Source: a virus. Taken from it: DNA of 36,985 nt. This document shows positions 4,066 through 17,016 of the stretch, piece after piece. Under the pieces are notes generated by a model. That model made no database searches. It had not been told where the DNA came from and worked only from the letters and a program-made list of their open reading frames with translations. Made by a program: the position numbers and the translations under genes. The stretch lies in IMG/VR virus record IMGVR_UViG_3300006033_000063, positions 1 through 36,985 of that record, one strand, 5' to 3'. Position 1 is the stretch's first letter. Every line of letters begins with the position of its first letter.

Positions 4066-4826
4066 TCCGCACCGCGCACCGCGCGGCCGGCGGGCACCAG
4101 CGCGAACACTTCACCGCGTCCGCTGCCGTTACGCGCGGCAGCCATTGCAGCCGCTTGGGCCGCTTCAGCCTTGCTGAAGATGCGCATCGGGCGCTTGGGC
4201 GCGCGCACCAGGTAGCAAGCTGCGGTGTAGCGATCGTCGCCCGACAGGAGCGAGGCGCCGCGCATGGCGTCGCGCTGCAGTTCTTCGACCTGCTCTTGGA
4301 GGGCGGCGCGCGCAATGCGCTCGTGGGCGAGCTCGGCTTCGGCTACATCCAACTGTTGGCGCAGATCTGAGACGGCCTGCGTCAGATCCATGATCATCAC
4401 ACCCTGCTCAAGCAGCTTGTGATCCGTTTCGGTCGGCTCGTCCACCGCAACCGGCGCCGCCGTGGAGACGTCGGCAGGCACTTCCGGTGCGGGTTCAGGT
4501 TGGACGGCAGCGCCCTCGGCGGAAAGCGAAGGGAGAGCCGATGCGCTGCTGCCGGTGTTTTTCGTCACCGGCTGGACGTTCTTCAGGTTGTTGCCCTGCT
4601 TGGTCGCTGCACCTTCGGCAAGACGGGCTTTGCCGGCTTCGGTCAGGTGATACCCCGGCTGGCCGGTCACGTCGTCACGCGCCATTTCCAGCAGGCCGGA
4701 CTTCTTGCAGTCGATCACGGACCATTTCACCTTCTGGCTGTCGTGATCGATGGCGTCGCAGATTTCGGTCATGGGCGCGCCCGGGTTCTTCGACACGGCG
4801 CGCAGGATTTCAAAACGGAGGTTCAT
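4047..4826 (-). CDS. Winged-helix DNA-binding protein with coiled coil
   Basis: The chosen start (4826) gives 259 aa and overlaps the upstream stop by ATGA, with an AGGGA sequence 6 bases before it; a longer frame from 4997 lies wholly inside the upstream gene. Residues 1-70 look like a winged-helix domain of the MarR/replication-regulator type (MTEICDAIDHDSQKVKWSVI, then GYHLTEAGKARL). A Pro/Ala-rich linker follows, then a coiled coil (about 135-185), then an Ala-rich C-terminal region. It may be a replication regulator or helicase-loading partner; that role is inferred from position next to the helicase only. Confidence 0.75.
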   Translation of the reverse strand: MNLRFEILRAVSKNPGAPMTEICDAIDHDSQKVKWSVIDCKKSGLLEMARDDVTGQPGYHLTEAGKARLAEGAATKQGNNLKNVQPVTKNTGSSASALPSLSAEGAAVQPEPAPEVPADVSTAAPVAVDEPTETDHKLLEQGVMIMDLTQAVSDLRQQLDVAEAELAHERIARAALQEQVEELQRDAMRGASLLSGDDRYTAACYLVRAPKRPMRIFSKAEAAQAAAMAAARNGSGRGEVFALVPAGRAVRGAEWRAQV

Positions 4827-5089
4827 TTCGGTCCCTTTTGGGTTGCAGTTTTCTTTCTGGCCAGCAGCTGGCGCGCGTCTTCGACTTCGAGCACCTCTGC
4901 TTCGCCTTTCTTGGGCTTGTGCTCTGCACGGATTCGCACTTTCACCACCTCGAGGCGCTTGATGAAATTGCGCAGCTCGAAGCAGGCTTTTCGACACGCG
5001 ATGCGGGCGTCACCTGCCATCACGTTCATGTGGTGACTGACCCCCCCCTCTGTCGAGATGAGCACGCTGAATTCGCGACGCCGGCTCAT
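4823..5089 (-). CDS. Conserved small phage protein, 88 aa
   Basis: Both ends are coupled by ATGA overlaps to the nuclease gene upstream and the winged-helix gene downstream. The sequence starts with a beta-like segment (REFSVLISTEGGVSHHMNV), continues with a helix and ends in a Lys-rich tail, so nucleic-acid contact is possible. There is no recognised motif. Confidence 0.7.
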   Translation of the reverse strand: MSRRREFSVLISTEGGVSHHMNVMAGDARIACRKACFELRNFIKRLEVVKVRIRAEHKPKKGEAEVLEVEDARQLLARKKTATQKGPK

Positions 5090-6291
5090 GCCGCCACCTT
5101 TGCGCCGAAGGCCTGGCGGAAGGCCTCGATGTCGGGGTGGCCAATGGCGCGCTTGTCCTCACATGCGTGAATCTCGATGCTGCTGTAGTCCTGGGCGCCG
5201 CCTTCGGCGTTCTGGAACTGCGCGCCCGTGGCGCGGTTGCGGTACGTCACCACGTTGGCCGCGTCGTCGCCGCCGATGGGCTCGGCCCAGTTTTCGAGCA
5301 GGATCGGAATGAACCGGTGCGCCTGGCAGCCCTGCAGCTGGTGCTCGAACGCAAGCGGGCGGATGCTGTGACGCTCGCACGACCAGGTGCCGTCGCGCTC
5401 GGGGGTGATGTGCGCGCAGCTGCGGCAGGTGGGCGCGGGCGCCGCGGTGCCGTGGCAGAGCGCGTGCATATGGCAGAACTTGCACTCGAACCACGCCGGG
5501 TCGTTGCTGATGGGCGGCGGCGGCTCGGCAGCGAAGATGATCTGCTCGGCGCGGTGCAGGATGGCTTGTGCGGCCTTGTGGTCGAGCTCGAGGCGCTCGG
5601 TGTAGATCGCGTCGTTGTCCTTGTTCACCGCCATGTACATGGCGCGCTCCATGCCGGTCAGCGCCATGTAGACCTGCATCTGCGCCCAGTGCATGTACTT
5701 GGCCTTCTCGACGCCTTCGCGCTCGAGCTTGGCAAAGCTCTTGGCGTTGTGGGTCTTGAACTCCAGCACGTGCCACGTTTTGGGGGCTTCGGGCAGGCCG
5801 ATGCAGGCGCCGTCCATGTGGCCGCGGAAGTGGCCGCCGTGGGCGCTGACGGCGAACTGGCGGCCATCCGGCGCCACCTCATGTACCGTGACGCCGATCG
5901 CGCGCAGGTCCTCGATGAAGAAGGCCTCTTCGTTGTGGCCGCGCTTGAAGAGCCGCAGCAGCCGGCCGCCGAACTGCTCGCGCCGCGCCAGGCGAAACGA
6001 CAGCCACAGGTAGCGGGCGCAGTGGTGGCCAATGGCGGAAGCGCCCAGGTAAGGGCGAGGCGGCTGCGCGGCTTCGCGCGCCTCGTAGGCGGCAAAGATC
6101 GCCGCGGCGGTCTGGTATTGGGGTTCGGGCAGTGCGGGCATGTCGGCCTCGAATGCAGGGCAACGGCTGCGGGTGTCTGAGGGATAGGTGAGCGTCGGGC
6201 GGTCAGTCAGACCCGCCTCGACGGGTTTGCGGCAGTGCAGACGGGTGTCAATGCGCCTGCACCCCGCGTGCTTGCAGGCGCGACAGATCAC
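5086..6291 (-). CDS. PD-(D/E)XK nuclease with Fe-S-type cysteines and duplicated Cys-rich modules
   Basis: The central domain is a RecB/Cas4-like exonuclease: HMDG Asp160, EFK (E177, K179) and a QxxxY motif (Q204-Y208). Cys91 plus C270-x2-C273-x5-C279 reproduces the Cas4/AddB iron-sulfur pattern. I place the start at GTG 6291 because it overlaps the upstream TGA (GTGA) like most junctions in this operon, giving 401 aa. The added N-terminal 50 residues form a Cys-rich module (CRACKH, then C20 and C44). A similar module, CRSCAH with C305 and C322, follows the Fe-S cysteines, which supports the long form. A start at ATG 6141 (351 aa) with a nearby GAGG remains possible. Likely role: 5' end resection for the Sak4 recombination module. 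Confidence 0.85.
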   Translation of the reverse strand: MICRACKHAGCRRIDTRLHCRKPVEAGLTDRPTLTYPSDTRSRCPAFEADMPALPEPQYQTAAAIFAAYEAREAAQPPRPYLGASAIGHHCARYLWLSFRLARREQFGGRLLRLFKRGHNEEAFFIEDLRAIGVTVHEVAPDGRQFAVSAHGGHFRGHMDGACIGLPEAPKTWHVLEFKTHNAKSFAKLEREGVEKAKYMHWAQMQVYMALTGMERAMYMAVNKDNDAIYTERLELDHKAAQAILHRAEQIIFAAEPPPPISNDPAWFECKFCHMHALCHGTAAPAPTCRSCAHITPERDGTWSCERHSIRPLAFEHQLQGCQAHRFIPILLENWAEPIGGDDAANVVTYRNRATGAQFQNAEGGAQDYSSIEIHACEDKRAIGHPDIEAFRQAFGAKVAA

Positions 6292-6875
6292 GCGTTTTGC
6301 TGCCAGGGCATGGCCGACTGCTGCTGCGCCGGCGCCTGACCCGCCCACGGTGCAGGCTGCTGGACAAACGGCGCAGGCTGCGCGGGCTGGTGAAACGCGG
6401 GTGCAGGCTGCTGCGCCGGCTGAGCGAACGCCGGCTGCGGGGCGAAGGGGGCAGGCTGAGGTGCCGCAGCCGGCATGCCTTGAACGCCGGCAGGCTCGTA
6501 GCCCTTTACCTCGTTGTCGTCGCCGTACTGCTCGTCCTTGCGAACAACAACGCGCACGCGCGCTGGGCGGTTGTGCAGCTGGGTGCTGTCCTGCAGGCGC
6601 AGCACACTCACCGCGTGGCACAGGGCCGACAGTTGCTTTTGCCCGATCTGCTCGGCGGCCTGGCTGGCGTTCTTGACGTTGATGCGGTCGAAAATCAGCC
6701 GGCCTTTGTACTGGCCGTCCAGCACCTTCCAGGTGGCCTGTAGATAGTGGCCGGTGCCGTTCTTGGTGGGCTTGATGTCGCTCTCGATGATCTGAGCGAG
6801 ATAGGTTCCGGCCGGGATCGGCGACATTCCGGCATCGGGTTCAACGGTGGTGGCGTCAAAGCTGAAGGCAGCCAT
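6288..6875 (-). CDS. DUF669-family, ssDNA-binding-like protein
   Basis: This 195-aa protein has an N-terminal beta-rich domain with the family features IPAGTYLAQIIESDIKPTKNGTGHYL and ATWKVLDGQYKGRLIFDRINVKN, typical of DUF669 proteins that accompany phage recombinases. The last 75 residues are a Pro/Ala/Gln/Phe repeat-rich disordered tail, resembling the flexible tail of SSB proteins, ending in MPWQQNA. A strong AAGGAGC ribosome site lies 9 bases upstream. It follows the Sak4-like gene by 26 bases, and the pair probably coats and anneals phage ssDNA. Binding itself is inferred from family and context. Confidence 0.82.
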   Translation of the reverse strand: MAAFSFDATTVEPDAGMSPIPAGTYLAQIIESDIKPTKNGTGHYLQATWKVLDGQYKGRLIFDRINVKNASQAAEQIGQKQLSALCHAVSVLRLQDSTQLHNRPARVRVVVRKDEQYGDDNEVKGYEPAGVQGMPAAAPQPAPFAPQPAFAQPAQQPAPAFHQPAQPAPFVQQPAPWAGQAPAQQQSAMPWQQNA

Positions 6876-6901: not shown

Positions 6902-7591
6902 TCAGAAAGGGGTGCCGGTGATCTTGGCGTGGATGTGCGCGAGGTCAGGCGGCTCGAACATGTCGAGCGCGCCAGAGCGGTCCTTGGCCTCGTAATTGAA
7001 GTCGCGCGCGGTTTGCAGCACGCGGTAGGGGTTGCCTTCGGGGTCGCGTTCGATGCGCAGGCTGAACACTTCGTCGAAGAAGTAACCGATGCCTTGCTTG
7101 AGGGTGTTGCCCGGCAGGCTGGGGTAATAGAGCATTGCCCCGGTCTGCTCGTCCTTGGCGCGCTCTTGCTTGCAGCTGAAGTACACGTTGCGGCCTGGCA
7201 GGTCGCGGAAGGCGCGCACCAGCTCGCCCATGCGCTCGGCCAGTGCGCCGTAGGCCTGGCGCGGGTCCTTGGCGCCTTTCTTCTCTGCGGCCAGGCACAC
7301 TTCGCCGATCTCGCTGATCGAGTCCAGGCACACCCACTTGAACTGCTGGCCCTCGCCCGATTCGGTGACGAACTTGTAGGCCTCGTGCACGTCATCGATG
7401 CTCTTGACCTCGATGACGGGGATGTCCTTGTCGCGCAGGGACAGCAGACCGGCCTCGGCACTGATGATGACCGTGGGTGCCGCCGTGGTCCCGCACAGCA
7501 CCGTTTTGCCAGCGCCTGCCGGGCCATGCACCAGGATCTTGATGCCGTTGTCGCGCACCGACTGCTTGGTGCTCGTGAGCTTGATTGCCAT
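6902..7591 (-). CDS. Sak4-like RecA-fold ATPase (phage recombination)
   Basis: The 229-aa product has Walker A GPAGAGKT (about 23-30) and Walker B WVCLDSISEI, and the short single-domain RecA core of phage AAA_24/Sak4 proteins, which act as single-strand annealing or strand-exchange recombinases with a partner SSB. The DUF669 and nuclease genes directly downstream complete a recombination set. The ATG overlaps the previous stop as TGATG, with GAGGTG 5 bases before it. A longer frame reaching 7720 is rejected because it overlaps the upstream gene. Confidence 0.88.
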   Translation of the reverse strand: MAIKLTSTKQSVRDNGIKILVHGPAGAGKTVLCGTTAAPTVIISAEAGLLSLRDKDIPVIEVKSIDDVHEAYKFVTESGEGQQFKWVCLDSISEIGEVCLAAEKKGAKDPRQAYGALAERMGELVRAFRDLPGRNVYFSCKQERAKDEQTGAMLYYPSLPGNTLKQGIGYFFDEVFSLRIERDPEGNPYRVLQTARDFNYEAKDRSGALDMFEPPDLAHIHAKITGTPF

Positions 7592-7980
7592 CACAGCACC
7601 TCGACCTTGACACCCGGTTTGCTGGGCTTGGCGGTGATGAACTGCGCGGCGGCGGCATAGGCGTCGGGCGCCATGTCTTGCGCGGCGCGCAGCTTGCGCG
7701 TGTCGATATCGGCGCTCCACTTGAAGACGGCTTGCGCCTGTGCGGGCAGAAAGGACCAGTGCTCTTGCAGGGCCGCGGTGTCGACGCTGCGGGTCAGCTT
7801 GCGTGTGACCGACACCTTCACGGTGTCGAGCTTGTTGGTGGTGGTGCCTTCGTCTGCGCCGGGCAGCATCGCGACGATCTGCGCCTCGATTTCGTAGCGG
7901 CGCGTGCGGGCGGCGTCCTCGTCGGCCTTGGCGGCAAGCCAGGCGGCAGACAGCGTATCCAGTGAGGTGGGGGCGTTCAT
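7591..7980 (-). CDS. Conserved phage protein of recombination operons, 129 aa
   Basis: The start at 7980 overlaps the upstream 50-aa gene by ATGA and has AAGGA 9 bases before it. The protein begins with an Ala-rich helical segment (SAAWLAAKADEDAARTRRYEIEAQI) and then KVSVTRKLTRSVD and FITAKPSKPGVKVEVL. This layout matches a conserved phage family commonly found beside recombination genes, but its biochemical function is not known to me. Confidence 0.8.
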   Translation of the reverse strand: MNAPTSLDTLSAAWLAAKADEDAARTRRYEIEAQIVAMLPGADEGTTTNKLDTVKVSVTRKLTRSVDTAALQEHWSFLPAQAQAVFKWSADIDTRKLRAAQDMAPDAYAAAAQFITAKPSKPGVKVEVL

Positions 7981-8129
7981 TTGCGGTTTCCTTCGGTCGA
8001 TTGGTGAATGGCCTGCTCGGTGTAGTGGTCCTGAAGCTCGAGGGCGCCGTAGCCGAGAAAGATCAGCGCAGCAGCGAGCCAGCGCGCCCACGTCGGTAGC
8101 GGATTGGAATCGGTCGGTCGGTGGTTCAT
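7977..8129 (-). CDS. Small single-span membrane protein, 50 aa
   Basis: This short gene fills the space between the Gly-X repeat gene and the 129-aa gene. It ends in an ATGA overlap with the latter. The product has one hydrophobic segment (WARWLAAALIFLGYGAL, about 14-30) followed by a charged C-terminus (ELQDHYTEQAIHQSTEGNRK). The upstream ribosome site is weak. Function unknown; a membrane anchor or superinfection factor are only possibilities. Confidence 0.6.
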   Translation of the reverse strand: MNHRPTDSNPLPTWARWLAAALIFLGYGALELQDHYTEQAIHQSTEGNRK

Positions 8130-8151: not shown

Positions 8152-8415
8152 TCAGCCGGAGCCGTCGCCGGAGCCGTAGCCGTCGCCGGAGCCGTCGCCG
8201 TCGCCGGAGCCGTAGCCGTCGCCGGAGCCGGAGCCGTCGCCGTCGCCGGAGCCGTAGCCGTCGCCGGAGCCGTCGCCGTAGCCGGAGCCGGAGCCGTAGC
8301 CGGAGCCGGAGCCGTAGCCGGAGCCGGAGCCGTAGCCGGAGCCGGAGCCGTAGCCGGAGCCGTAGCCGTCGCCGGAGCCGTCGCCGGAGCCGGAGCCGTA
8401 GCCGGAGCCGTAGCC
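8152..8415. repeat. Hexanucleotide tandem repeat array
   Basis: About 43 tandem 6-bp units on the plus strand, each GTAGCC, GGAGCC or GTCGCC, run without interruption for roughly 260 bp. Units differ mainly in the second and third bases. Because the unit is 6 bp, gain or loss of units keeps the reading frame of the repeat gene. The array is a likely site of slippage and of assembly error. Confidence 0.9.
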
Positions 8416-8430
8416 GGTTACTTCCGCCAT
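8152..8430 (-). CDS. (Gly-X)43 repeat protein, X = Tyr, Ser or Asp
   Basis: After a MAEVT leader the 92-aa protein consists of 43 Gly-X dipeptides plus a final Gly. X is Ser 21 times, Tyr 11 times and Asp 11 times. All repeat Gly codons are GGC and X codons are TAC, TCC or GAC, so the DNA is an array of near-identical hexamers. It overlaps the upstream DUF6948-like gene by 13 bases. I recall similar Gly-Tyr-Ser-Asp proteins beside such genes in other phages, which suggests selection rather than chance. It is low-complexity and could phase-separate or bind nucleic acid; that is speculation. It could instead be a non-translated repeat. Confidence 0.6.
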   Translation of the reverse strand: MAEVTGYGSGYGSGSGDGSGDGYGSGYGSGSGYGSGSGYGSGSGYGSGSGYGDGSGDGYGSGDGDGSGSGDGYGSGDGDGSGDGYGSGDGSG

Positions 8431-8961: not shown

Positions 8962-9597
8962 CTAGGCGGTCACTTCAGCCGCTGATTGCGAATGGTTGCT
9001 GTAGGTCGGCCAGTCGGGCATGTAGTCGTCGGCTTGGTTCCCCCAGGTCGCCCATCCTTCGCGGCTGCCGCGCGCGAATAGCTCGAGGTAATCACCTGGG
9101 CTGCACGACTCGATCAGCTCATATTGCTCGTCTGGCTTGCGCGAGTGCTCGCGCTTCATCGTCTTGATGATGTTCACCTGCCGGCGCCCAGGCGCAAGCG
9201 TGCGCGCATTCTTGCCGCGCACACCGAAGAGCAGCAGCTCAGTGGTGTTGCGGAAGTAGAATCCGACGCCACGCCCGTCCGGCCCGCCGTCCTTCCTGAT
9301 CTTGTGCCAGACGATGTTGCTCTTGTACTGGAAGCCCCAAGCCTGCATGACCTGCAGCCCCTCGGGCAGTAGCGCATTAGGCACCCACAGGTAAAGGTGC
9401 GCGGGGTCGTCGGCAAGCTGCGCGACGGGCAGGGCAAGGATGTCTGGCAGCATCATTGTGCCGTAGCGGTTCAGGCGCTTGTGCTCGGGCGCCATCTTGC
9501 CGGTGCGGTTCTGGAACTGCCACGGCGGGTCAGCCAGGATTGTGCGGAATTTGCGCCCGCCGACGCGGTCGAGCAGGTCTTGCGAGGCGTCATTCAT
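8962..9597 (-). CDS. MT-A70 family N6-adenine DNA methyltransferase
   Basis: The 211-aa protein carries the catalytic DPPW motif (23-26) of the MT-A70 family after a short N-terminus, then LYLWVPNALLPEGLQVMQAWGFQYKSNIVWHK and a C-terminal SAM-binding segment (PGDYLELFARG). It would transfer a methyl group from SAM to N6 of adenine in phage and host DNA. Its start overlaps the restriction endonuclease stop by 8 bases, the usual R-M pairing. It is last in the repressor operon, before two terminators. The target sequence cannot be read from the gene. Confidence 0.9.
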   Translation of the reverse strand: MNDASQDLLDRVGGRKFRTILADPPWQFQNRTGKMAPEHKRLNRYGTMMLPDILALPVAQLADDPAHLYLWVPNALLPEGLQVMQAWGFQYKSNIVWHKIRKDGGPDGRGVGFYFRNTTELLLFGVRGKNARTLAPGRRQVNIIKTMKREHSRKPDEQYELIESCSPGDYLELFARGSREGWATWGNQADDYMPDWPTYSNHSQSAAEVTA

Positions 9598-10249
9598 GTT
9601 GGTCGTCCTTGATCAGCTTCGGAGTGATGCCCAGCACCAGCACCGGGCAGCCGCCGCTGCGGCCAGCGTTGATCCGGTAGAGCAGCTTGCCCATCCAGGT
9701 GGTGCTGGCGCCGTACTTCGGCATGATACCGAGTTGGCGGAACACTTCGTTCATTGATTCGCTTCGCGTGAGCAGCACGGCCGCGCTGATGATGCCTGCC
9801 TCGTGGAACGCGCGGAAAGCGTACAGGTCGCGGTCGAAGGTCTGGTCCTTACTGTTCCACTCCATGTCGAACGCGACGGCGTTCTTCACGAAGTCGATCT
9901 TGTGACCATCCATGAAGCGCTCGAGCCGCCGCTCGTGACGCACGATTCCGGTGTCGGCGCGCGTCTCCATCGTGACCAGCAGGTCGCCATAGATGCGCGA
10001 CTCGAACCAGCCGGACGGGCGCAGCAAACCTGCCATTCGGCGCGGTATCGCTGACTCGTTTCCTCCTGGCGCAAGCAGGTCGGCGCGCGTGATGTGGAAG
10101 GCTTCGAGCGCATGAACCAGCTCGGCCATCTCGTCCGGGCAGCCCGCCGCAAGCACCTCGGCTGCATGGCGGAAATTGTGAACCTCGTAGCGCTGCAGCA
10201 CCGGCTCGGGCAGGTACCGCTCAATCACTTCTTGCCATCCTTTCTCCAT
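9590..10249 (-). CDS. BglII/BstYI-type restriction endonuclease
   Basis: The 219-aa product matches the RE_BglII family. The catalytic region KIDFVKNAVAFDMEWNSKDQ has Asp119 and an Asp128-x-Glu130 pair aligned to the Asp-Glu-x-Gln active site of BglII/BstYI, followed by TFDRDLYAFRAFHEAG and the conserved TTWMGKL...GGCPVLVLGITPKL end. It should cut unmethylated DNA. It starts 7 bases after the CI stop and overlaps the methyltransferase gene, so it is probably expressed from the repressor promoter. No strong ribosome site precedes it, which fits low expression of a toxic nuclease. Specificity is unknown; an AGATCT-like target is only a guess from the family. Confidence 0.85.
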   Translation of the reverse strand: MEKGWQEVIERYLPEPVLQRYEVHNFRHAAEVLAAGCPDEMAELVHALEAFHITRADLLAPGGNESAIPRRMAGLLRPSGWFESRIYGDLLVTMETRADTGIVRHERRLERFMDGHKIDFVKNAVAFDMEWNSKDQTFDRDLYAFRAFHEAGIISAAVLLTRSESMNEVFRQLGIMPKYGASTTWMGKLLYRINAGRSGGCPVLVLGITPKLIKDDQHE

Positions 10250-10256
10250 GTACGGT

Positions 10257-10889
10257 TCATCGATACCGTTTCACTGCCTCGCGCACCACGCCCACGATGC
10301 GGCTGTGCCCGAGCGGCTTGATCGGGTAGCGCGGGTTGAGCGGCTTCAGGTACAGGTCGGCACCGTCCCTCACGAGCTGCTTGAACGTGGCCTCGTCATC
10401 GCCATTCTTGGCGATCACGTAGTCGCCAGGGTGGGCGTCCATCTCGGGCTCGACGACCAGGATGGTGCCGGGCGCAAACTCGGGCTCCATCGAATCGCCC
10501 TCGACGCGCAGCGCAAAGGTATGTGCCTGCACCGACACGCTGGTGTCGATCCACTCGAAGCCTTCGCCCGGATGCAGCAGATCGGCCGCGTGCGACCAGT
10601 CTCCAGCCTGCACCCATGAGATCAGCGGCACGCGGTGGCGTCGCTCGGGCGCCGCGCTCACGTTCGAGGGCTCGTGCAGGGGTGGGGTGGCGGCAGCCGC
10701 TCCCGACTCCAACTCTTCAACGGATAGCCCGAATGCGCGCGCCAACGCAGTCGCGTACTGCGAGCGTTTGCTGTCGCGCTTTTCAAGCGCGTTGATCGTG
10801 CCGACTTCGACGCCAGACCTTACGGAAAGGTCTTCCATCGTCCAGCCGTTTCGCTTGCGCAGCGCCTCGACGTTTTTTCCCAGTGCCAT
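10257..10889 (-). CDS. cI: LexA-like CI phage repressor
   Basis: This 210-aa protein maintains lysogeny. Residues 1-60 form an XRE helix-turn-helix (MEDLSVRSGVEVGTINALEKRD). Residues 85-210 are an S24 peptidase domain with an Ala95-Gly96 cleavage site (SWVQAGDW), nucleophile Ser133 in EGDSMEP and Lys170 in EATFK. It should self-cleave on RecA filaments, making the prophage SOS-inducible. It is divergent from the cro-like gene and is followed by the restriction-modification genes. The start codon sits 6 bases after a -10-like element, so the mRNA may be leaderless, as for lambda cI. Confidence 0.93.
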   Translation of the reverse strand: MALGKNVEALRKRNGWTMEDLSVRSGVEVGTINALEKRDSKRSQYATALARAFGLSVEELESGAAAATPPLHEPSNVSAAPERRHRVPLISWVQAGDWSHAADLLHPGEGFEWIDTSVSVQAHTFALRVEGDSMEPEFAPGTILVVEPEMDAHPGDYVIAKNGDDEATFKQLVRDGADLYLKPLNPRYPIKPLGHSRIVGVVREAVKRYR

Positions 10890-10933: not shown

Positions 10934-10963
10934 TTGAAATTCCAACATCTACAGTTGTAGAAT
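10934..10963 (+). promoter_or_regulatory. Rightward early promoter PR
   Basis: TTGAAA (10934..10939), an 18-bp spacer and TAGAAT (10958..10963) match PL in spacing and -10. The predicted start, about 7 bases after the -10, falls on the A of the cro-like ATG at 10970, so the transcript is predicted leaderless. No Shine-Dalgarno is present. Confidence 0.8.
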
Positions 10964-10970
10964 CTCTACA
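10948..10970. promoter_or_regulatory. Operator OR1 with a third half-site
   Basis: TCTACA (10948..10953) and TGTAGA (10956..10961) form a dyad with a 2-bp spacer over the PR spacer and -10. A third half-site TCTACA at 10965..10970 makes an overlapping dyad with a 3-bp spacer and ends at the start codon. The alternative pairing could let CI and Cro-like proteins use the half-sites differently. Confidence 0.8.
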
Positions 10971-11212
10971 TGGATCAGCTCATTAAAGCCCTCTCTGTAG
11001 TTGGCGGCCCGGCAAAGCTGGCGGCAACCCTTGGCGTGTCCGTTCAGGCGGTTTGCTTCTGGCGCGATGGGGCTCGCCGCATTCCGGCTGAACACTGCCC
11101 CGCCATCGAACGCGCTACCGCCGGCTCCGTGCGCTGCGAAGACCTGCGCCCGGACGTGGATTGGGGTTACCTCCGCGGCACCGCGCCCGCCCACCACCAC
11201 GAGGCGGCGTGA
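10970..11212 (+). CDS. Cro/YdaS-like transcriptional regulator
   Basis: The 80-aa product has a helix-turn-helix typical of Cro/YdaS regulators (GGPAKLAATLGVSVQAVCFWRDGARRIPAEHCPAIERAT, about 12-50). It is transcribed divergently from CI and would repress the repressor promoter to favour lytic growth. The ATG is at the predicted PR start and lacks a ribosome site, so leaderless translation is likely. Confidence 0.88.
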   Translation: MDQLIKALSVVGGPAKLAATLGVSVQAVCFWRDGARRIPAEHCPAIERATAGSVRCEDLRPDVDWGYLRGTAPAHHHEAA

Positions 11213-11213
11213 G

Positions 11214-11405
11214 ATGAGCGTGATCTGCGTGACGTTGTCCGATGCCCAGCTGGCGCGCCTGGCTGAACTGGTCGTGCAGCGGCTTACGGTGCAGCTGCGC
11301 TCGCAAAGCCCATTTGCCGCACCCCCTCTCCAGACAGCACCGCTGCAATGCCGTGGGTCGGAAGCTCCAGGCGCAGATGCGCGTCCGGCAGGGATAACGT
11401 GGTGA
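11214..11405 (+). CDS. Small early protein, 63 aa, unknown
   Basis: It starts 1 base after the cro-like stop. The first 30 residues (VTLSDAQLARLAELVVQRLTVQL) look like an amphipathic helix as in other small phage early proteins; the last half is low complexity. Its 3' 122 bases overlap the convergent gene at 11284..11541, so its C-terminal part may simply reflect antisense coding. It could be a CII-position protein but shows no CII motif. Confidence 0.5.
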   Translation: MSVICVTLSDAQLARLAELVVQRLTVQLRSQSPFAAPPLQTAPLQCRGSEAPGADARPAGITW

Positions 11406-11541
11406 AAGGCACGCCGACCTCGATGGATTCGACGAGCAGGTATTGCACCGGCTCGTTCTGGAATACGGCCGTTCGGGTGTGCGCCGCGAGCAGCGCGCGG
11501 ACACAGGGCTCCAGCGCCGCCGACAAGACGACTGACTTCAT
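11284..11541 (-). CDS. Convergent small gene, 85 aa, unknown
   Basis: This ORF runs against the PR operon. It has a good AAGGGGA-type ribosome site about 5 bases before the ATG, coding-like use of G/C third positions and a plausible protein composition (MKSVVLSAALEPCVRALLAAH; VQYLLVESIEVGVPFTTLSLPDAHLRLELP), so I regard it as real. It overlaps the 63-aa gene on the other strand by 122 bases, so the two transcripts would be complementary there. No domain recognised. Confidence 0.55.
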   Translation of the reverse strand: MKSVVLSAALEPCVRALLAAHTRTAVFQNEPVQYLLVESIEVGVPFTTLSLPDAHLRLELPTHGIAAVLSGEGVRQMGFASAAAP

Positions 11542-11723
11542 GGCTTCCCCTTTGTGAAGGATGGTGATGTGAGAACCAACATCCTACCTGCATTGGGGAA
11601 GCCGCCCGTTTCCATGGCGACATCATCGTCGTCCCCGCTCGCGAGTCGGTATAGCCCGCGTGTTGCGCCTTCGCCGATGGCCAGTAATCGGCGACCCACC
11701 CTCTGACAACCTTTGACGCTGCC
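11542..11723. other. Intergenic region, no gene seen
   Basis: These 182 bases separate the convergent 85-aa gene from the ribbon-helix-helix gene. They should contain the promoter of the leftward gene, and a TAGGAT -10-like element occurs on the minus strand, but I see no convincing -35. No hairpin terminator or repeat was found. Confidence 0.4.
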
Positions 11724-11921
11724 ATGGACAAGATGACCGACAACCTGAACATCAAGATGCCCCCCGAGCTGGTCGCGCGCATCAGCCTTGCCGCCGGGTT
11801 CTATGGCGAAGGGCGCTGCGACTACATCCGCCGGCTGATCGAAGAGGATCTGGCGCGCCTGGAGGCCAAGCGCGAAATCCTCAATGCCATGTTCGGGTGC
11901 GGCGATGGGCTTCCCAAGTAA
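11724..11921 (+). CDS. Ribbon-helix-helix-like small DNA-binding protein
   Basis: The 65-aa protein has the pattern of an Arc/CopG-type fold: a short strand (LNIKMPPEL), a helix (VARISLAAGFYGEGRCDYIRRLIEEDLARLEAKREIL) and a short tail. Such proteins regulate copy number or early transcription. It lies directly before the replication gene. No ribosome site is obvious; ATG 11733 is an alternative start. Confidence 0.7.
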   Translation: MDKMTDNLNIKMPPELVARISLAAGFYGEGRCDYIRRLIEEDLARLEAKREILNAMFGCGDGLPK

Positions 11922-11934
11922 AACCGGGTTCGAT

Positions 11935-14505
11935 ATGGCACGCCCCGCACAGCCCGCAGCGCACGCCCCCATGGCCGAGTGGGCCTGCGCCTATGTGCGC
12001 ATGGGCTTTCACCTGTGCTTGCTGCGCCCGAAGCAGAAGATTCCGATGCTGGCGGCCTGGAACGATCCGCACCGCGTGCTCGACACCGAAGACAAGGTGC
12101 GGGCGGCGCTGCTGGCCAACCCTGCCTGCGGCATTGGCCTGGTGCATGCGACCAGCCGCACGGCGACGCTCGACGTGGATCACGTGGACTTCACCCGGCT
12201 GGCGTTCGCGCAGTTCGGGATCGAGTTCGATGCGCTGCTGGCGGCGTTCCCGCGCCTCAAGAGCCGCGAGGGGCGCGACAAGATTCTGATGCGCCTGCCC
12301 GAGGGCTTTGTGCCGGGTGCCGAGGGTGTGCCGACGAAAACCGTGCTGCGCTGGCCAGACCCGGCCACCGGCGAGATGGTGACGGTGCTCGAGCTGCGCG
12401 GCGGCATCAACCAGGACGTGCTGGCGCCGTCGATCCACCCGGACACGCAGCAGCCCTATGCGTGGGCAGAGGGGCAATCGCCCTGGGACTTCGAGGCGGT
12501 GCCCGAGATCGATGCGCGCTTGCTGACGATCTGGCGGGAGTGGCCGCGCTTTGGCAAGCAGCTGGAGCAGGCGTGCCCCTGGCGCCCCAAGATGGAGGAC
12601 GCGCCGCCGCCGGTGATGCGGGCAACCAGCCGCCGCAACGACAGCCTGATCGAGCGCTTCAACGCTGACCACGACGTGGCGCAGTTGCTGACCGGCTACG
12701 GCTACAAGCGCATCGGTGCGCGTTGGCTGGCACCCAGCTCGAAAACGAAGCTGCCCGGCGTGGTGGTGCTCGAGGGCAAGGTGTATTCGCACCACGGATC
12801 GGACGTGCTCAACAACGGGCACGCGAACGATGCGTTCGATGTGTTCATGCTGCTCGAGCACGGCGGGGACTTTACTCGGGCGATTCGGGCGATTGCGAAG
12901 GAGTACCGCGAGCAGGATGCGCCGCCGACACCGGCCGACGTGTCGGGCTTCATGCAAAAGCTGGGCAGCACGAAGGATGAGCAGGTCGAGCGCCTGAAGG
13001 AGCTGGCCGCGCAGCCTGAGCTGTCGCGCGTGGACGATGCGGGCCTGCGCGTGGTGCCTTTCCCGGTGGCGGGCCTCGAGGCGCTGGCGCGCTGGTTTGA
13101 TGTGGCCTTCGATGAGACGCACCCGCTGGTGAGCCAAGCGGCCGTGCTGGCGCTGATTGGGACCGCCGCAGGCCGGCACTACGCCAGCCAGTACGGTGAC
13201 GGCACCGGCCTTTACCTGGGCCTGATGACGCCCCCCGGCGGCATGGCGCGCTACACCACGATCGGCTGCAACCAGGTGCTGATGGCGGCTGGCTTGCGCC
13301 ACATGGTGCGTGGTACGCGCCTGGGGAGCCCGCAGCAGCTCTACAGCCTGCTGTGGAACCGGCCGGCGGCGCTGTACCTGGCCGAAGACTACGGCGACCA
13401 GGTGCGCATTGCGCGGCGCCAGCCCTCGGGGCTGCTGGAGCAGACGCTGTCGCTGGTGACCGGGGCGGTGGCCAGTGGGGCCGATCTGCTGCTCGACAAC
13501 TGGCAGGAGATCGGACTCAAGCACAGCGACGGCGACGGCAACCCGCAGCCGACCATCCGCATGCCGGCGCTTTGCATGCTGGCGACGATCGCGGGCAACC
13601 AGGTGGGCAAGGTGTTTGGCCCGCTGGAGGTGTCACGCGGGTCTATCGACGGCATGCTGTTTGTGCCGGCGAGCAACCCGGACCACTGGCACGCCCGCCC
13701 GGCATTGCATGCGCCACCTGCGCCACCGGTTGAGGCCGTCGAGCGCCTGCGGGCGATGCGCGGCTTTGAGCCGGGGCAGACCTCGATGACCGCGGCGCAG
13801 ATGGACGCGGAGATCGGCGGCAGCCAGGCGACGCCGGTCACAGTGCGCTTCACGGGCGACGTGCAGGCGGTCGAGGCGGCCTGGATCACCAAATACAAGG
13901 GGCAGGGGCCCGCCATCCGCGCGATGGTGGCCGCGGCGCGCTCGCGCCTGCGCCGGATCTGTACCGCAATGGCGGCTTTCGCCAACCCGAAGGCACCGGT
14001 GGCGGACATGGCCATCGTGGCGTGGGCGGCCGGCTGGGTGGGGTACGGCCTGGAGCAGACGATTGTGGAGGCGGAGCTGCGCGCGACCGCGGACGACGAC
14101 CGGCCCGACGTGTATCAGCAGGTGCTTGAGTTTATCGGCGAGGCGGGCAGCGACGGGCGCGCAAAGCGCAGTCTGATCAGCGGCTGCAGGGCGTTCCGCT
14201 CGCTGTCGGACGACAAGCGCGCCGAGCTCATCACCCAGCTGCACGGCGACGAGCAGATCCACACGCTGCCCACCAAATCCGGGCGCGGGAAGGTCTATGT
14301 GCATGCCCGCTTCGTCAAGGTGCTGACGGAAAACGCAACTGCTGACGATGTGCTGACAAACGCTGTCAGCACTTCAAACACGCGCCAGCAAAGCGATGCA
14401 GCCCAAGTGCTGACAGCTGACAGCGGAAGTCCCTCCCTATTAGAGGATAGACATTCGGTATACGTCAGCACGTCAGCACGTCAGCACTTCGATGAAACCC
14501 AGTAG
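11935..14505 (+). CDS. Prim-pol type phage replication protein
   Basis: About 856 aa. The N-terminal 200 residues are a bifunctional primase-polymerase domain (AEP): MAEWACAYVRMGFHLCLLRP, catalytic Asp80-Val-Asp82 in LDVDH, and the APSIHPD motif near residue 165. A second domain (about 370-600) resembles DUF3987 primase-associated helicase-like proteins but shows no intact Walker A (LMTPPGGMARYTT in its place). The C-terminal 60 residues are low complexity because the DNA carries the GTCAGCAC repeat cluster. The start could also be at 11884 or 11905; 11935 puts it 13 bases after the upstream stop. It probably primes replication at the adjacent repeats. Confidence 0.85.
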   Translation: MARPAQPAAHAPMAEWACAYVRMGFHLCLLRPKQKIPMLAAWNDPHRVLDTEDKVRAALLANPACGIGLVHATSRTATLDVDHVDFTRLAFAQFGIEFDALLAAFPRLKSREGRDKILMRLPEGFVPGAEGVPTKTVLRWPDPATGEMVTVLELRGGINQDVLAPSIHPDTQQPYAWAEGQSPWDFEAVPEIDARLLTIWREWPRFGKQLEQACPWRPKMEDAPPPVMRATSRRNDSLIERFNADHDVAQLLTGYGYKRIGARWLAPSSKTKLPGVVVLEGKVYSHHGSDVLNNGHANDAFDVFMLLEHGGDFTRAIRAIAKEYREQDAPPTPADVSGFMQKLGSTKDEQVERLKELAAQPELSRVDDAGLRVVPFPVAGLEALARWFDVAFDETHPLVSQAAVLALIGTAAGRHYASQYGDGTGLYLGLMTPPGGMARYTTIGCNQVLMAAGLRHMVRGTRLGSPQQLYSLLWNRPAALYLAEDYGDQVRIARRQPSGLLEQTLSLVTGAVASGADLLLDNWQEIGLKHSDGDGNPQPTIRMPALCMLATIAGNQVGKVFGPLEVSRGSIDGMLFVPASNPDHWHARPALHAPPAPPVEAVERLRAMRGFEPGQTSMTAAQMDAEIGGSQATPVTVRFTGDVQAVEAAWITKYKGQGPAIRAMVAAARSRLRRICTAMAAFANPKAPVADMAIVAWAAGWVGYGLEQTIVEAELRATADDDRPDVYQQVLEFIGEAGSDGRAKRSLISGCRAFRSLSDDKRAELITQLHGDEQIHTLPTKSGRGKVYVHARFVKVLTENATADDVLTNAVSTSNTRQQSDAAQVLTADSGSPSLLEDRHSVYVSTSARQHFDETQ

Positions 14506-14574
14506 CAGCAAGGGATTGAACCGCTGACACGGCTTCAAAAAACCTGTCAGCACTTGTCAGCACTTTGTCAGCAC
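14320..14574. repeat. Iteron-like cluster of GTCAGCAC repeats, probable replication origin
   Basis: Ten exact copies of the octamer GTCAGCAC occur in 255 bp. Plus-strand copies start at 14365, 14464, 14472, 14480, 14546, 14556 and 14567; minus-strand copies at 14320, 14350 and 14407. Three (14464..14487) are perfectly head-to-tail and three (14546..14574) are spaced by 2-3 bases. The copies at 14350 and 14365 form a 9-bp hairpin. An AT-richer stretch lies between (14430..14462). The cluster spans the replication-gene 3' end and the 88-bp gap before the helicase. Lambda-type phages place the origin inside the replication gene, so this is a likely ori. Confidence 0.75.
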
Positions 14575-14593
14575 TTCGAACAGGACGAGAACC

Positions 14594-15925
14594 ATGGAAT
14601 TGACGACCGCACAACGCGCCGCCCTAGATCTGCTTGCCGACTTCGCCATGGGGCGAACACCGCATGGCATCGCAACGCTGTCCGGCTATGCCGGCGTGGG
14701 GAAAACCACCGTCGTGGCAGCGCTGCTCGATGAGGTGAGCACGGCGCTTCGCGTTCTGGTGACCGCGCCCACCCACAAGGCCCTGGCGGTGCTGGGCAGC
14801 AAGCTCGATGACACCCAGTGCGAGCTGATGACGACGCACGCTGCCCTGGGGATGAAACTGACCGAGCTCGAGAGCGGAGAGCATCGACTGCAGCGCGAGG
14901 GATCGGCCTGCATTGCTGACTACGATCTGGCCGTGGTCGATGAGGCTTCGATGATCCATCCGGATCTGTTCGCAACCATGCTCTCCGCCCGTCGGCGCTG
15001 TCGCATCCTGTTCGTGGGCGACCCCGCCCAACTGGCACCGGTGGGAAGCGACGAGATCAGCCAGGCGTTCGGCGACGTGGTGCCCCTGCATGTGCGCCTG
15101 GATGAAGTGGTGCGGCAGGCGGCAGAGCACCCTTCCATTCGCTTTTCGATTGCGCTGCGTGAGGATGTGGCCGCCGGTCGTGCCCCGTCCCTGCTGAAGC
15201 TGGCCAGCTTGATGCAGGCCGGCGATGAACGGCACATGGCCATCACGCCAGGCGGAGAGGCTGCACTGCAGACCTATGCGCTTGACGCCATCCGCAACGG
15301 GCTCGATACCCGCATCCTGGCTTTCACGAACCGGGCGTGCATCCGCCACAACGAGGCGATCCACGCGACCCTGTACCCAGGCGTGCATGGCTTTGCAGTC
15401 GGCGAGCAGGTGATCGCGCAAGAGGGCTTCCAGATGCGCGGCAAGCACGGCGACACGGTGCAGGTTCGGACCAGCGAGCTGCTGACCGTTGAAGAGGTTT
15501 CGACCGCTTTGCACGAGCTCTCGCCCGACATCCCGGCCTGGCAGATTCGATTGGTGGGCGAGGGCGGCAAATGTGGCACGGCGTGGGTGGCGCAGAACCG
15601 CCAGCTGCTCGAGCAAGAGATCGGCGAGCAGTTCGGGCTGTGGCGTCGCTACAAGGCCGAAGCCAAGTCCGCAGACCCCCGCAGCCGCGGCGCACTGGAA
15701 GCGCAGGCCAAGAAGGCCAGCGGCGCCGCGTGGGCCCTGCGTAGCCGCTACGCGAACATCCGCCACGCCTATGCGCTGACGATCCACAAGAGCCAGGGCA
15801 GCACCTTCGAGACGGTGCTGATCGACTGGTCTTCCGTGCCCAATGACGCGGGCGCGGATGCTGCGCGCCTGGCCTACGTGGCCATCACCCGGCCGTCGAA
15901 ATTCGCCGTGATCGTGACGCAGTGA
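14594..15925 (+). CDS. Dda/RecD2-like SF1B DNA helicase
   Basis: The 443-aa protein contains Walker A GYAGVGKT (31-38), DEAS Walker B (117-120), GDPAQLAPV motif III, an HKSQGST motif near 397 and a C-terminal YVAITRP motif VI. This matches Dda-type 5'-3' helicases of phages. It follows the iteron cluster and replication protein and likely opens or remodels the fork. A weak AGGA ribosome site lies upstream. Confidence 0.9.
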   Translation: MELTTAQRAALDLLADFAMGRTPHGIATLSGYAGVGKTTVVAALLDEVSTALRVLVTAPTHKALAVLGSKLDDTQCELMTTHAALGMKLTELESGEHRLQREGSACIADYDLAVVDEASMIHPDLFATMLSARRRCRILFVGDPAQLAPVGSDEISQAFGDVVPLHVRLDEVVRQAAEHPSIRFSIALREDVAAGRAPSLLKLASLMQAGDERHMAITPGGEAALQTYALDAIRNGLDTRILAFTNRACIRHNEAIHATLYPGVHGFAVGEQVIAQEGFQMRGKHGDTVQVRTSELLTVEEVSTALHELSPDIPAWQIRLVGEGGKCGTAWVAQNRQLLEQEIGEQFGLWRRYKAEAKSADPRSRGALEAQAKKASGAAWALRSRYANIRHAYALTIHKSQGSTFETVLIDWSSVPNDAGADAARLAYVAITRPSKFAVIVTQ

Positions 15926-15935
15926 AGAGGCCCGC

Positions 15936-16364
15936 ATGATTTCGTTTGTGATTCCCGGTGCGCCCGTCGGCAAGGGCCGCCCGCGAGCATTTCGCATGGG
16001 CAACAGCGTGAGGATGCACACCCCGGAGAAGACCGCGATCTACGAGAACCTGGTCAGGGTGAAGGCCGAGGAGGCCATGGCCGGACGGCCCCTCATCGAG
16101 GGGGCTGTATCGGTGGAGATTGGCCTCTTCGTCACCCCGCCGGCGAGCTGGAGTCAGAAGAAACAGCGCGCGGCCATTGCGGGTGAGATCTTCCCGACCT
16201 CGAAGCCCGACGTCGACAACGTCGTGAAGGGCATCTTCGACGCCTGCAACGACATCGTGTGGCGCGACGACAAGCAGGCCTGTGACGTGACTGTCACCAA
16301 GCGCTACGCCACGGCGGCGATGGCGTATGTCCGGGTAAAGCCGCTGGCCTTGGCCGCATCGTGA
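15936..16364 (+). CDS. rusA: RusA-like Holliday junction resolvase
   Basis: The 142-aa product matches the RusA family: N-terminal GAPVGKGRPRAF, then KPDVDNVVKGIFDACNDIVWRDDKQ (about 90-114) with Asp92, Asp94 and Asp111 as likely Mg-binding residues, and Lys75/76. It resolves branched DNA from replication or recombination before packaging. AGAGG lies upstream of the ATG; the gene is 10 bases after the helicase. Confidence 0.93.
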   Translation: MISFVIPGAPVGKGRPRAFRMGNSVRMHTPEKTAIYENLVRVKAEEAMAGRPLIEGAVSVEIGLFVTPPASWSQKKQRAAIAGEIFPTSKPDVDNVVKGIFDACNDIVWRDDKQACDVTVTKRYATAAMAYVRVKPLALAAS

Positions 16365-16389
16365 ATTCGTGAAAATGGAGATCTCCCAC

Positions 16390-17016
16390 ATGGGTAAAAG
16401 CGCAACTGCAGAGGGACTGCAGCCGCTGTTCGAGAGCGCACACAGCGCGCTGGTGTTCGCCTTCAACTTCTCGGGTCAGTGCTATGACCGGCCGATGATG
16501 AATCGGCTGGCTGCGCCCGCGCTGGGCAGCGGGAAGGGGCTCGCCTCGCTCGACGGTGCGGGGCAGTCGGGGATGATCCGGGCCGAGCTGGCTGCGATCG
16601 GAAAGCTCGGCGAAGCGGTGCTGACCGCACGCGTCGCCCCGAGATCGATCCCGTGCCAGTGCCGTTCGTCGTGCTGCTCGGGACAGCGAGCGAACAGGGA
16701 CTGGGCGGACGCGATCGCTTACTTGTCCGAGCAGGCCAGAACGACGGCGCTGGCTGGCTGCACATCGAACGGCTTGCTCAGGCGCGAGTACGTCGTGCGC
16801 TACTTCACCCGGAAAGCGGACCGTGTAAGCCTCGAGGCGATCGCGGAGCGGCACGGCATCGCCCGCAACACGGTCAGCGCTCATGCTGCGAAGGTGGCCG
16901 CATGGCTTGGCGGCAAGACTGCAACCAAAGGCGAAGTGGTCGCGCCGGGCCTGGAAGCGATCGCTTTCGATGTGATCGACGAGCGCTTGCGCGCTGTCGG
17001 CATGGTGGGTGGATAG
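16390..17016 (+). CDS. Q-like late gene regulator / antiterminator
   Basis: The 208-aa product has a Cys-rich segment (CQCRSSCCSG, a probable metal site) and a C-terminal helix-turn-helix (VSLEAIAERHGIARNTVSAHAAKVAAWL, about 155-180). Position between the replication genes and a promoter/terminator pair just before the terminase is that of a Q antiterminator. The N-terminus fits a conserved family of phage regulators (MGKSATAEGLQPLFESAHSA). I chose ATG 16390 with GGAG 9 bases before it; in-frame GTG 16369 and ATG 16375 are alternatives. Confidence 0.72.
   Translation: MGKSATAEGLQPLFESAHSALVFAFNFSGQCYDRPMMNRLAAPALGSGKGLASLDGAGQSGMIRAELAAIGKLGEAVLTARVAPRSIPCQCRSSCCSGQRANRDWADAIAYLSEQARTTALAGCTSNGLLRREYVVRYFTRKADRVSLEAIAERHGIARNTVSAHAAKVAAWLGGKTATKGEVVAPGLEAIAFDVIDERLRAVGMVGG

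What the first reader, a model, noticed from the sequence alone, without database searches (positions are those of the whole stretch)
14320..14574. Ten-copy GTCAGCAC cluster marks a likely phage origin
Ten exact octamers on both strands lie in 255 bp, including one head-to-tail triplet and one inverted pair. By chance a given octamer would appear on either strand about 0.01 times in this span. It sits at the 3' end of the prim-pol gene and before the helicase.
Basis: partly seen in the sequence, partly recalled or inferred. Interest (0 to 1): 0.7.

Follow-up and report, generated by a model that had tools for sequence, protein, structure and literature searches.

The report
Phage replication origin with octamer iterons
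The ten short repeats are very probably the start site for copying this temperate phage's DNA, lying where the primase gene ends, and comparison of nine related phages suggests that a few residues in the primase's DNA-binding tail change together with the repeat sequence.

Summary
Ten GTCAGCAC octamers (7 plus, 3 minus) lie at 14320-14574; in 200 simulations of the window no octamer exceeded 4 copies in 255 bp. Three extra GTCAGC cores and an AT-rich spacer (14422-14463) complete a mirrored layout. Eight relatives, seven found by primase protein similarity without using the repeats, all carry a repeat cluster at the primase 3' end before an SF1 helicase gene, mostly with another sequence (GTCTACAC, GTCGACAC, GTCTCCCA, CTCTCCAC, TCTACC, GTCAGAAA). 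[quoted passage not shown] I conclude it is an iteron origin, most likely bound by the winged-helix tail of the primase. Phages of different clades that share an octamer share the same residues 765-767 there (ISG with GTCAGCAC, HKY with GTCTCCCA); these columns rank 27, 2 and 1 of 371 for covariation with the repeat. The primase lacks a Walker A motif, so the neighbouring RecD2/Dda-like helicase probably opens the DNA. No origin activity or binding was tested. New variant of a known kind.

The parts
11884..14505 (+). prim-pol gene (873 aa): N-terminal archaeo-eukaryotic primase domain, a middle domain without a Walker A motif, and a C-terminal winged helix
   Evidence: Pfam Prim-Pol E 8.5e-14; no [AG]xxxxGK[ST]; AF2 C-terminal model mean pLDDT 82 with winged-helix topology
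14101..14313 (+). coding region of the C-terminal winged helix (residues about 740-810), proposed iteron-binding domain
   Evidence: AF2 H-H-H-E-E; best folds RPC34 and MarR-type winged helices, Z up to 9.5
14176..14184 (+). codons of residues 765-767 (Ile-Ser-Gly), which covary with the iteron sequence across nine family members
14320..14372 (.). left iteron block: octamers 14320(-), 14350(-), 14365(+) and core GTCAGC 14341(-), inside the primase reading frame
14320..14505 (+). iteron-encoded, poorly conserved and disordered tail of the primase (residues 813-873 and stop)
   Evidence: no counterpart in most relatives; pLDDT under 50
14407..14421 (-). core, left arm: octamer 14407(-) and GTCAGC core 14416(-)
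14422..14463 (.). AT-rich spacer, proposed DNA unwinding element: 52% AT against 34% mean; 1.4% of same-length windows are as AT-rich
14464..14487 (+). core, right arm: three head-to-tail octamers with 8-bp period
14523..14574 (.). right iteron block: GTCAGC core 14523(-), octamers 14546(+), 14556(+), 14567(+) spaced 10 and 11 bp
14594..15925 (+). SF1 helicase (RecD2/Dda-like), Walker A GYAGVGKT at residue 31; proposed helicase partner at the origin
   Evidence: PHROG Dda-like helicase E 6.5e-77; AAA_30 and UvrD_C_2
15936..16364 (+). RusA Holliday junction resolvase, next gene downstream
   Evidence: Pfam RusA E 5.2e-32

Best explanation
The region 14320-14574 is the phage's replication origin and its octamers are iterons. 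The C-terminal winged helix of the prim-pol protein, whose gene ends inside the cluster, binds them; binding on both sides of the AT-rich spacer 14422-14463 strains and opens it; the SF1 RecD2/Dda-like helicase encoded immediately downstream acts there; and the prim-pol domain primes synthesis. The octamers inside the primase reading frame encode a dispensable disordered tail. SHOWN here: the cluster, its mirrored layout and AT-rich spacer, conservation of position with turnover of sequence in relatives, the winged-helix model, the missing Walker A motif, and covariation of residues 765-767 with the octamer. INFERRED: binding by the primase, melting, helicase loading, priming, and origin activity itself.
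For: (1) Eight relatives carry a repeat cluster at the primase 3' end before an SF1 helicase gene. Seven were found by protein alone: L056 9x GTCTACAC, L058 8x GTCTCCCA, L059 4x GTCAGAAA plus GTCAGAGA; L062 (= L063) GTCGACAC and L064 9x GTCTCCCA plus near copies; L075 and L076. L018 was found through the octamer. The cluster is the densest octamer cluster of the locus in L056, L058, L059, L062 and L064, second in L018, tied first in L075; in L076 it is degenerate and seen only as hexamers TCTACC. (2) Mirrored repeats flank an AT-rich spacer: window 52% AT vs 34% mean, L018 70 vs 40, L056 66 vs 41, L058 72 vs 35. (3) More distant prim-pol phages with another helicase domain (Pseudomonas LPPA56, Meadow, Turba, Lodos, Presto, SC_9: 9-12x CCCAACAC; KT1: ACCCTAAC) have their densest cluster just past the primase stop. 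(4) P4 record NC_001609: annotated 'ori type 1' octamers TGTTCACC in crr 4291-4590, beside the 3' end (4636) of the alpha primase gene, and in ori. (5) PMC6092414 Fig. [quoted passage not shown] coli PICI origins, with replicon function tested. (6) Across two clades supported 100/100, window and L018 share GTCAGCAC and ISG at 765-767; L064 and L058 share GTCTCCCA and HKY; partial Mantel ranks columns 767 and 766 first and second of 371; label permutation 9/2000 for the triple. (7) In viral contigs, GTCAGCAC clusters of 4 or more copies lie by replication genes in four of six loci (L018 prim-pol, L020 prim-pol/VapE, L022 AAA_25, L008 DnaT-like); the reversed octamer gave one such cluster in 14 loci, a simple tandem array.
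Against: No experiment. The covarying residues sit in the first helix of the HTH and not in the canonical recognition helix of a MarR-type fold, and the pattern was noticed by eye in seven sequences before being scored in nine, so 9/2000 is optimistic. Different-iteron pairs are nearly as similar over the whole HTH. The window's spacer is less AT-rich than those of its relatives. Six other prim-pol phages (L035-L040) show no strong cluster at this place. GC skew does not mark this spot.
Confidence: 0.8

Rival explanations
1. The octamers are an origin, but the binding protein is not the primase: the SF1 helicase, an unknown ORF (10949-11782 or 16369-17016) or a host protein reads them.
For: GTCAGCAC clusters also occur beside unrelated replication proteins (AAA_25, DnaT-like, prim-pol/VapE) in L022, L008, L020, which could mean a shared factor.
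Against: Within the family the octamer changes from phage to phage, which a host factor would not easily allow; the winged helix is part of the primase and its residues 765-767 covary with the octamer. No DnaA box with up to one mismatch in the window.
Confidence: 0.2
2. The repeats are operators for a transcription regulator (repressor, or autoregulation of the primase-helicase operon).
For: Short repeats on both strands between genes are typical of operators; the window has a CI/LexA-like repressor gene at 10257-10889.
Against: No promoter-like site in 13900-15100; the cluster is internal to co-directional genes, partly inside a coding sequence, and not at the divergent region near 10.9-11.9 kb; only four scattered copies elsewhere.
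Confidence: 0.1
3. The repeats are priming sites for the prim-pol enzyme and not binding sites for an initiator domain; the complement GTGCTGAC begins with GTG, the start site of the pRN1 prim-pol.
For: PMC4234260 reports primase activity of ORF904 starting at GTG and an origin just 3' of its gene; GTG ends also occur in the octamers of L056, L062, L075.
Against: GTCTCCCA (L058, L064) and GTCAGAAA (L059) have no GTG/CAC; clustering, mirrored order and 8-11 bp phasing are not needed for priming.
Confidence: 0.07
4. A partition centromere, a packaging site, or a chance or low-complexity array.
For: L012 has five tandem GTCAGCAC upstream of a terminase small subunit gene.
Against: No partition gene was recognised among the neighbours that were scanned; the terminase large subunit gene is 3 kb away in the window; the position follows the primase gene in all relatives; simulations exclude chance.
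Confidence: 0.05

Closest known systems
Satellite phage P4 crr and ori (alpha protein, type 1 octamers TGTTCACC; NC_001609)
   Same: Octamer repeats on both strands in small groups; crr adjoins the 3' end of the primase gene; groups flank an AT-rich stretch; alpha has a winged-helix origin-binding domain (Yeo et al. 2002, title cited in PMC4234260).
   Different: Different octamer; P4 has separate ori and crr; alpha fuses primase, helicase and origin-binding domain (own knowledge), while here the primase has no Walker A motif and an SF1 helicase is a separate gene.
PICI / SaPI Pri-Rep-ori replicons (PMC6092414)
   Different: Satellites, not a full temperate phage with integrase, repressor, terminase, capsid and tail genes; iteron sequences and initiators not compared here.
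pRN1-type prim-pol replicon (PMC4234260)
   Same: Prim-pol protein with winged helix; essential cis region directly 3' of its gene.
   Different: pRN1 uses a 100-nt stem-loop, not iterons.
Lambda-type ori inside the initiator gene O (own knowledge)
   Same: Iterons inside the initiator's own gene plus an AT-rich element.
   Different: Initiator is not a primase; iterons are longer; host DnaB helicase is recruited.

Membership tests
Iteron replication origin (general) | Several short specific repeats clustered beyond chance | tested here: met
   10 octamers in 255 bp; simulations at most 4
Iteron replication origin (general) | AT-rich unwinding element next to or between the repeats | tested here: met
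   14422-14463, 52% AT, 1.4% of windows as AT-rich; stronger in relatives
Iteron replication origin (general) | Initiator encoded nearby that binds the repeats | tested here: inconclusive
   Winged helix in the adjoining primase and covariation; binding itself not testable
Iteron replication origin (general) | Drives autonomous replication | not testable with these tools
   needs a mini-replicon assay
P4-type crr/ori | Octamers in both orientations at the 3' end of the primase gene | tested here: met
P4-type crr/ori | Type 1 octamer TGTTCACC | tested here: not met
   octamer is GTCAGCAC
P4-type crr/ori | Initiator with a fused active helicase (Walker A) | tested here: not met
   no Walker A in the primase; it is in the separate SF1 helicase
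P4-type crr/ori | C-terminal domain has the fold of the P4 origin-binding domain | tested here: inconclusive
   winged-helix matches; the P4 domain is not among the rows listed
[quoted passage not shown]
PICI Pri-Rep-ori | Lies in a satellite island without a full set of structural genes | tested here: not met
   terminase, portal, scaffold, major head and tail genes present

The most novel reading that the evidence does not exclude
Residues 765-767 of the primase winged helix form a compact specificity code for the variable bases of the octamer (ISG with GTCAGCAC, HKY with GTCTCCCA, HKV with CTCTCCAC, VNK with GTCTACAC, TRG with GTCGACAC), reached twice independently in separate clades, so that phages of this family become separate replicons by changing three residues and the iterons together.
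Probability: 0.4. Interest if true: 0.7.

Novelty: new variant of a known kind. Interest (0 to 1): 0.5.

Why it matters
It gives likely replication origins to a set of uncultivated temperate phages and a simple way to find them: look for mirrored octamers at the primase 3' end. If the covariation holds, the set is a natural series for reading how an origin-binding winged helix changes specificity. It also describes an initiator that seems to have lost its own ATPase and to work with a separate SF1 helicase.

Tried and rejected
GC skew to mark the origin: no clear switch at 14.4 kb. DnaA boxes: none in the window with up to one mismatch. Promoter/terminator reading: nothing found. Recombination of a whole winged-helix/iteron cassette between clades: not supported, because the HTH is the best conserved stretch in most cross-clade pairs and same-octamer pairs are only slightly above. 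Recurrence of GTCAGCAC beside unrelated replication genes as evidence for one shared binding protein: left open, since that scan selected for the octamer. Full-length AF2 model: mean pLDDT 40.6, used only for the C-terminal secondary structure. Genome-contig scans found no relative. A match to the P4 origin-binding domain was hoped for in the fold search but is not among the listed rows. Divergence of L075 and L076 peaks elsewhere too, so the helix is only among the more variable stretches.

Full report
WHAT IS THERE. The window is a 36,985-bp virus record of a temperate phage: serine integrase, CI/LexA-like repressor, terminase, portal, scaffold and major head genes. GTCAGCAC occurs 14 times, ten of them at 14320-14574, seven on the plus and three on the minus strand. 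No octamer exceeded 4 copies in 255 bp in 200 simulations. The cluster starts 61 codons before the prim-pol stop (14503-14505) and ends 19 bp before the ATG of an SF1 RecD2/Dda-like helicase. Counting the 6-bp core GTCAGC there are three more sites, 14341(-), 14416(-), 14523(-).

LAYOUT. The sites fall in three blocks: left (14320-14372, inside the primase frame), core (14407-14487) and right (14523-14574). In the core, minus-strand sites lie to the left and plus-strand sites to the right of a 42-bp spacer that is 52% AT in a 34% AT genome; 1.4% of same-length windows are as AT-rich. The same core (two or more sites in minus orientation, a spacer, two or more in plus orientation) is seen in L018, L056, L058, L064, the Pseudomonas phages and KT1, with spacers of 66-72% AT in L018, L056 and L058.

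RELATIVES FOUND WITHOUT USING THE REPEATS. Protein searches with the primase C-terminal half gave L056, L058, L059, L062/L063 and L064, L075 and L076. All have repeats at the primase 3' end, before an SF1 helicase, but with other sequences: GTCTACAC, GTCTCCCA, GTCAGAAA, GTCGACAC, GTCTCCCA, CTCTCCAC, and hexamers TCTACC. In five loci this is the densest octamer cluster; L018 is second to a GC-rich array, L075 is tied, and L076 is too degenerate for the octamer count. L018, found through the octamer itself, has the same gene order with only 33% identity over 473 aa of the primase. Position is kept while sequence turns over, as expected of a binding site that evolves with its protein. More distant prim-pol phages of Pseudomonas, with another helicase domain, have 9-12 copies of CCCAACAC just past the primase stop. 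Six other prim-pol phages did not (L035-L040), so this is not universal.

POSITIVE CONTROL AND LITERATURE. In P4 the annotated ori type 1 octamers (TGTTCACC) form crr beside the 3' end of the alpha primase gene, and ori, in small groups of both orientations around AT-rich DNA. PMC6092414 states for E. [quoted passage not shown] PMC4234260 places the pRN1 origin directly 3' of its prim-pol gene. These make origin the natural reading.

WHO BINDS. The C-terminus of the primase is predicted as a winged helix (mean pLDDT 82; best matches RPC34 and MarR-type winged helices, Z up to 9.5, which shows a fold and not a function). The family falls in two clades with 100/100 support, about 29-38% identical between clades. 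Across this divide window and L018 share GTCAGCAC and Ile-Ser-Gly at 765-767, and L064 and L058 share GTCTCCCA and His-Lys-Tyr; of 36 possible cross-clade pairings only this one gives three consecutive matching columns. In a partial Mantel test over 371 columns, controlling for overall identity, columns 767 and 766 rank first and second and 765 ranks 27th; the triple is reached in 9 of 2000 label permutations. L075, added afterwards, has HKV with CTCTCCAC, sharing TCTCC with the HKY octamer; its sister L076 (83% identical in the middle domain) has PKL with TCTACC. Cautions: nine sequences, noticed by eye first, and the residues lie in the first HTH helix, not the canonical recognition helix. 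Whole-HTH identity does not separate same-octamer from different-octamer pairs.

HELICASE. No Walker A motif is found in the primase of the window or its relatives (the one regular-expression hit, in L058, is not shared by the others), while the downstream SF1 helicase has GYAGVGKT. The initiator therefore probably relies on the neighbouring helicase; this is inference.

VERDICT. An iteron origin of the P4/PICI type in a full temperate phage, with a divided primase and helicase. Origin reading 0.8; binding by the primase winged helix about 0.6; three-residue code about 0.4.

Noticed in passing
8154-8416: In-frame 18/12-bp tandem repeat with about 21 copies of GCCGGAGC, encoding a Gly-Tyr-Ser-Asp-rich stretch on the minus strand (ORF 8152-8430).
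   Followed up: partly
8962-10249 (-): BglII-family restriction endonuclease next to an MT-A70 family adenine methyltransferase, beside the repressor gene: possibly a phage-borne restriction-modification pair.
   Followed up: no
5086-6621 (-) and 7591-8091 (-): Cas4-domain exonuclease and a protein with a weak RecE-like match: a likely recombination module.
   Followed up: no
L058 3440-3790: A perfect DnaA box TTATCCACA lies inside the iteron cluster of L058; the window has none.
   Followed up: partly
L012 407-454: Five GTCAGCAC in perfect 10-bp tandem upstream of a terminase small subunit gene, not beside a recognised replication gene.
   Followed up: no
L062 4549-4773: Eleven TGTCGACA palindromes; the end of the primase there (STCVDSVDNSVST) is encoded by the iterons themselves.
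   Followed up: partly
L058 and L059 primase N-termini: The N-terminal domain has no Pfam Prim-Pol hit while the C-terminal half, iterons and helicase are kept, suggesting exchange of the primase domain.
   Followed up: partly
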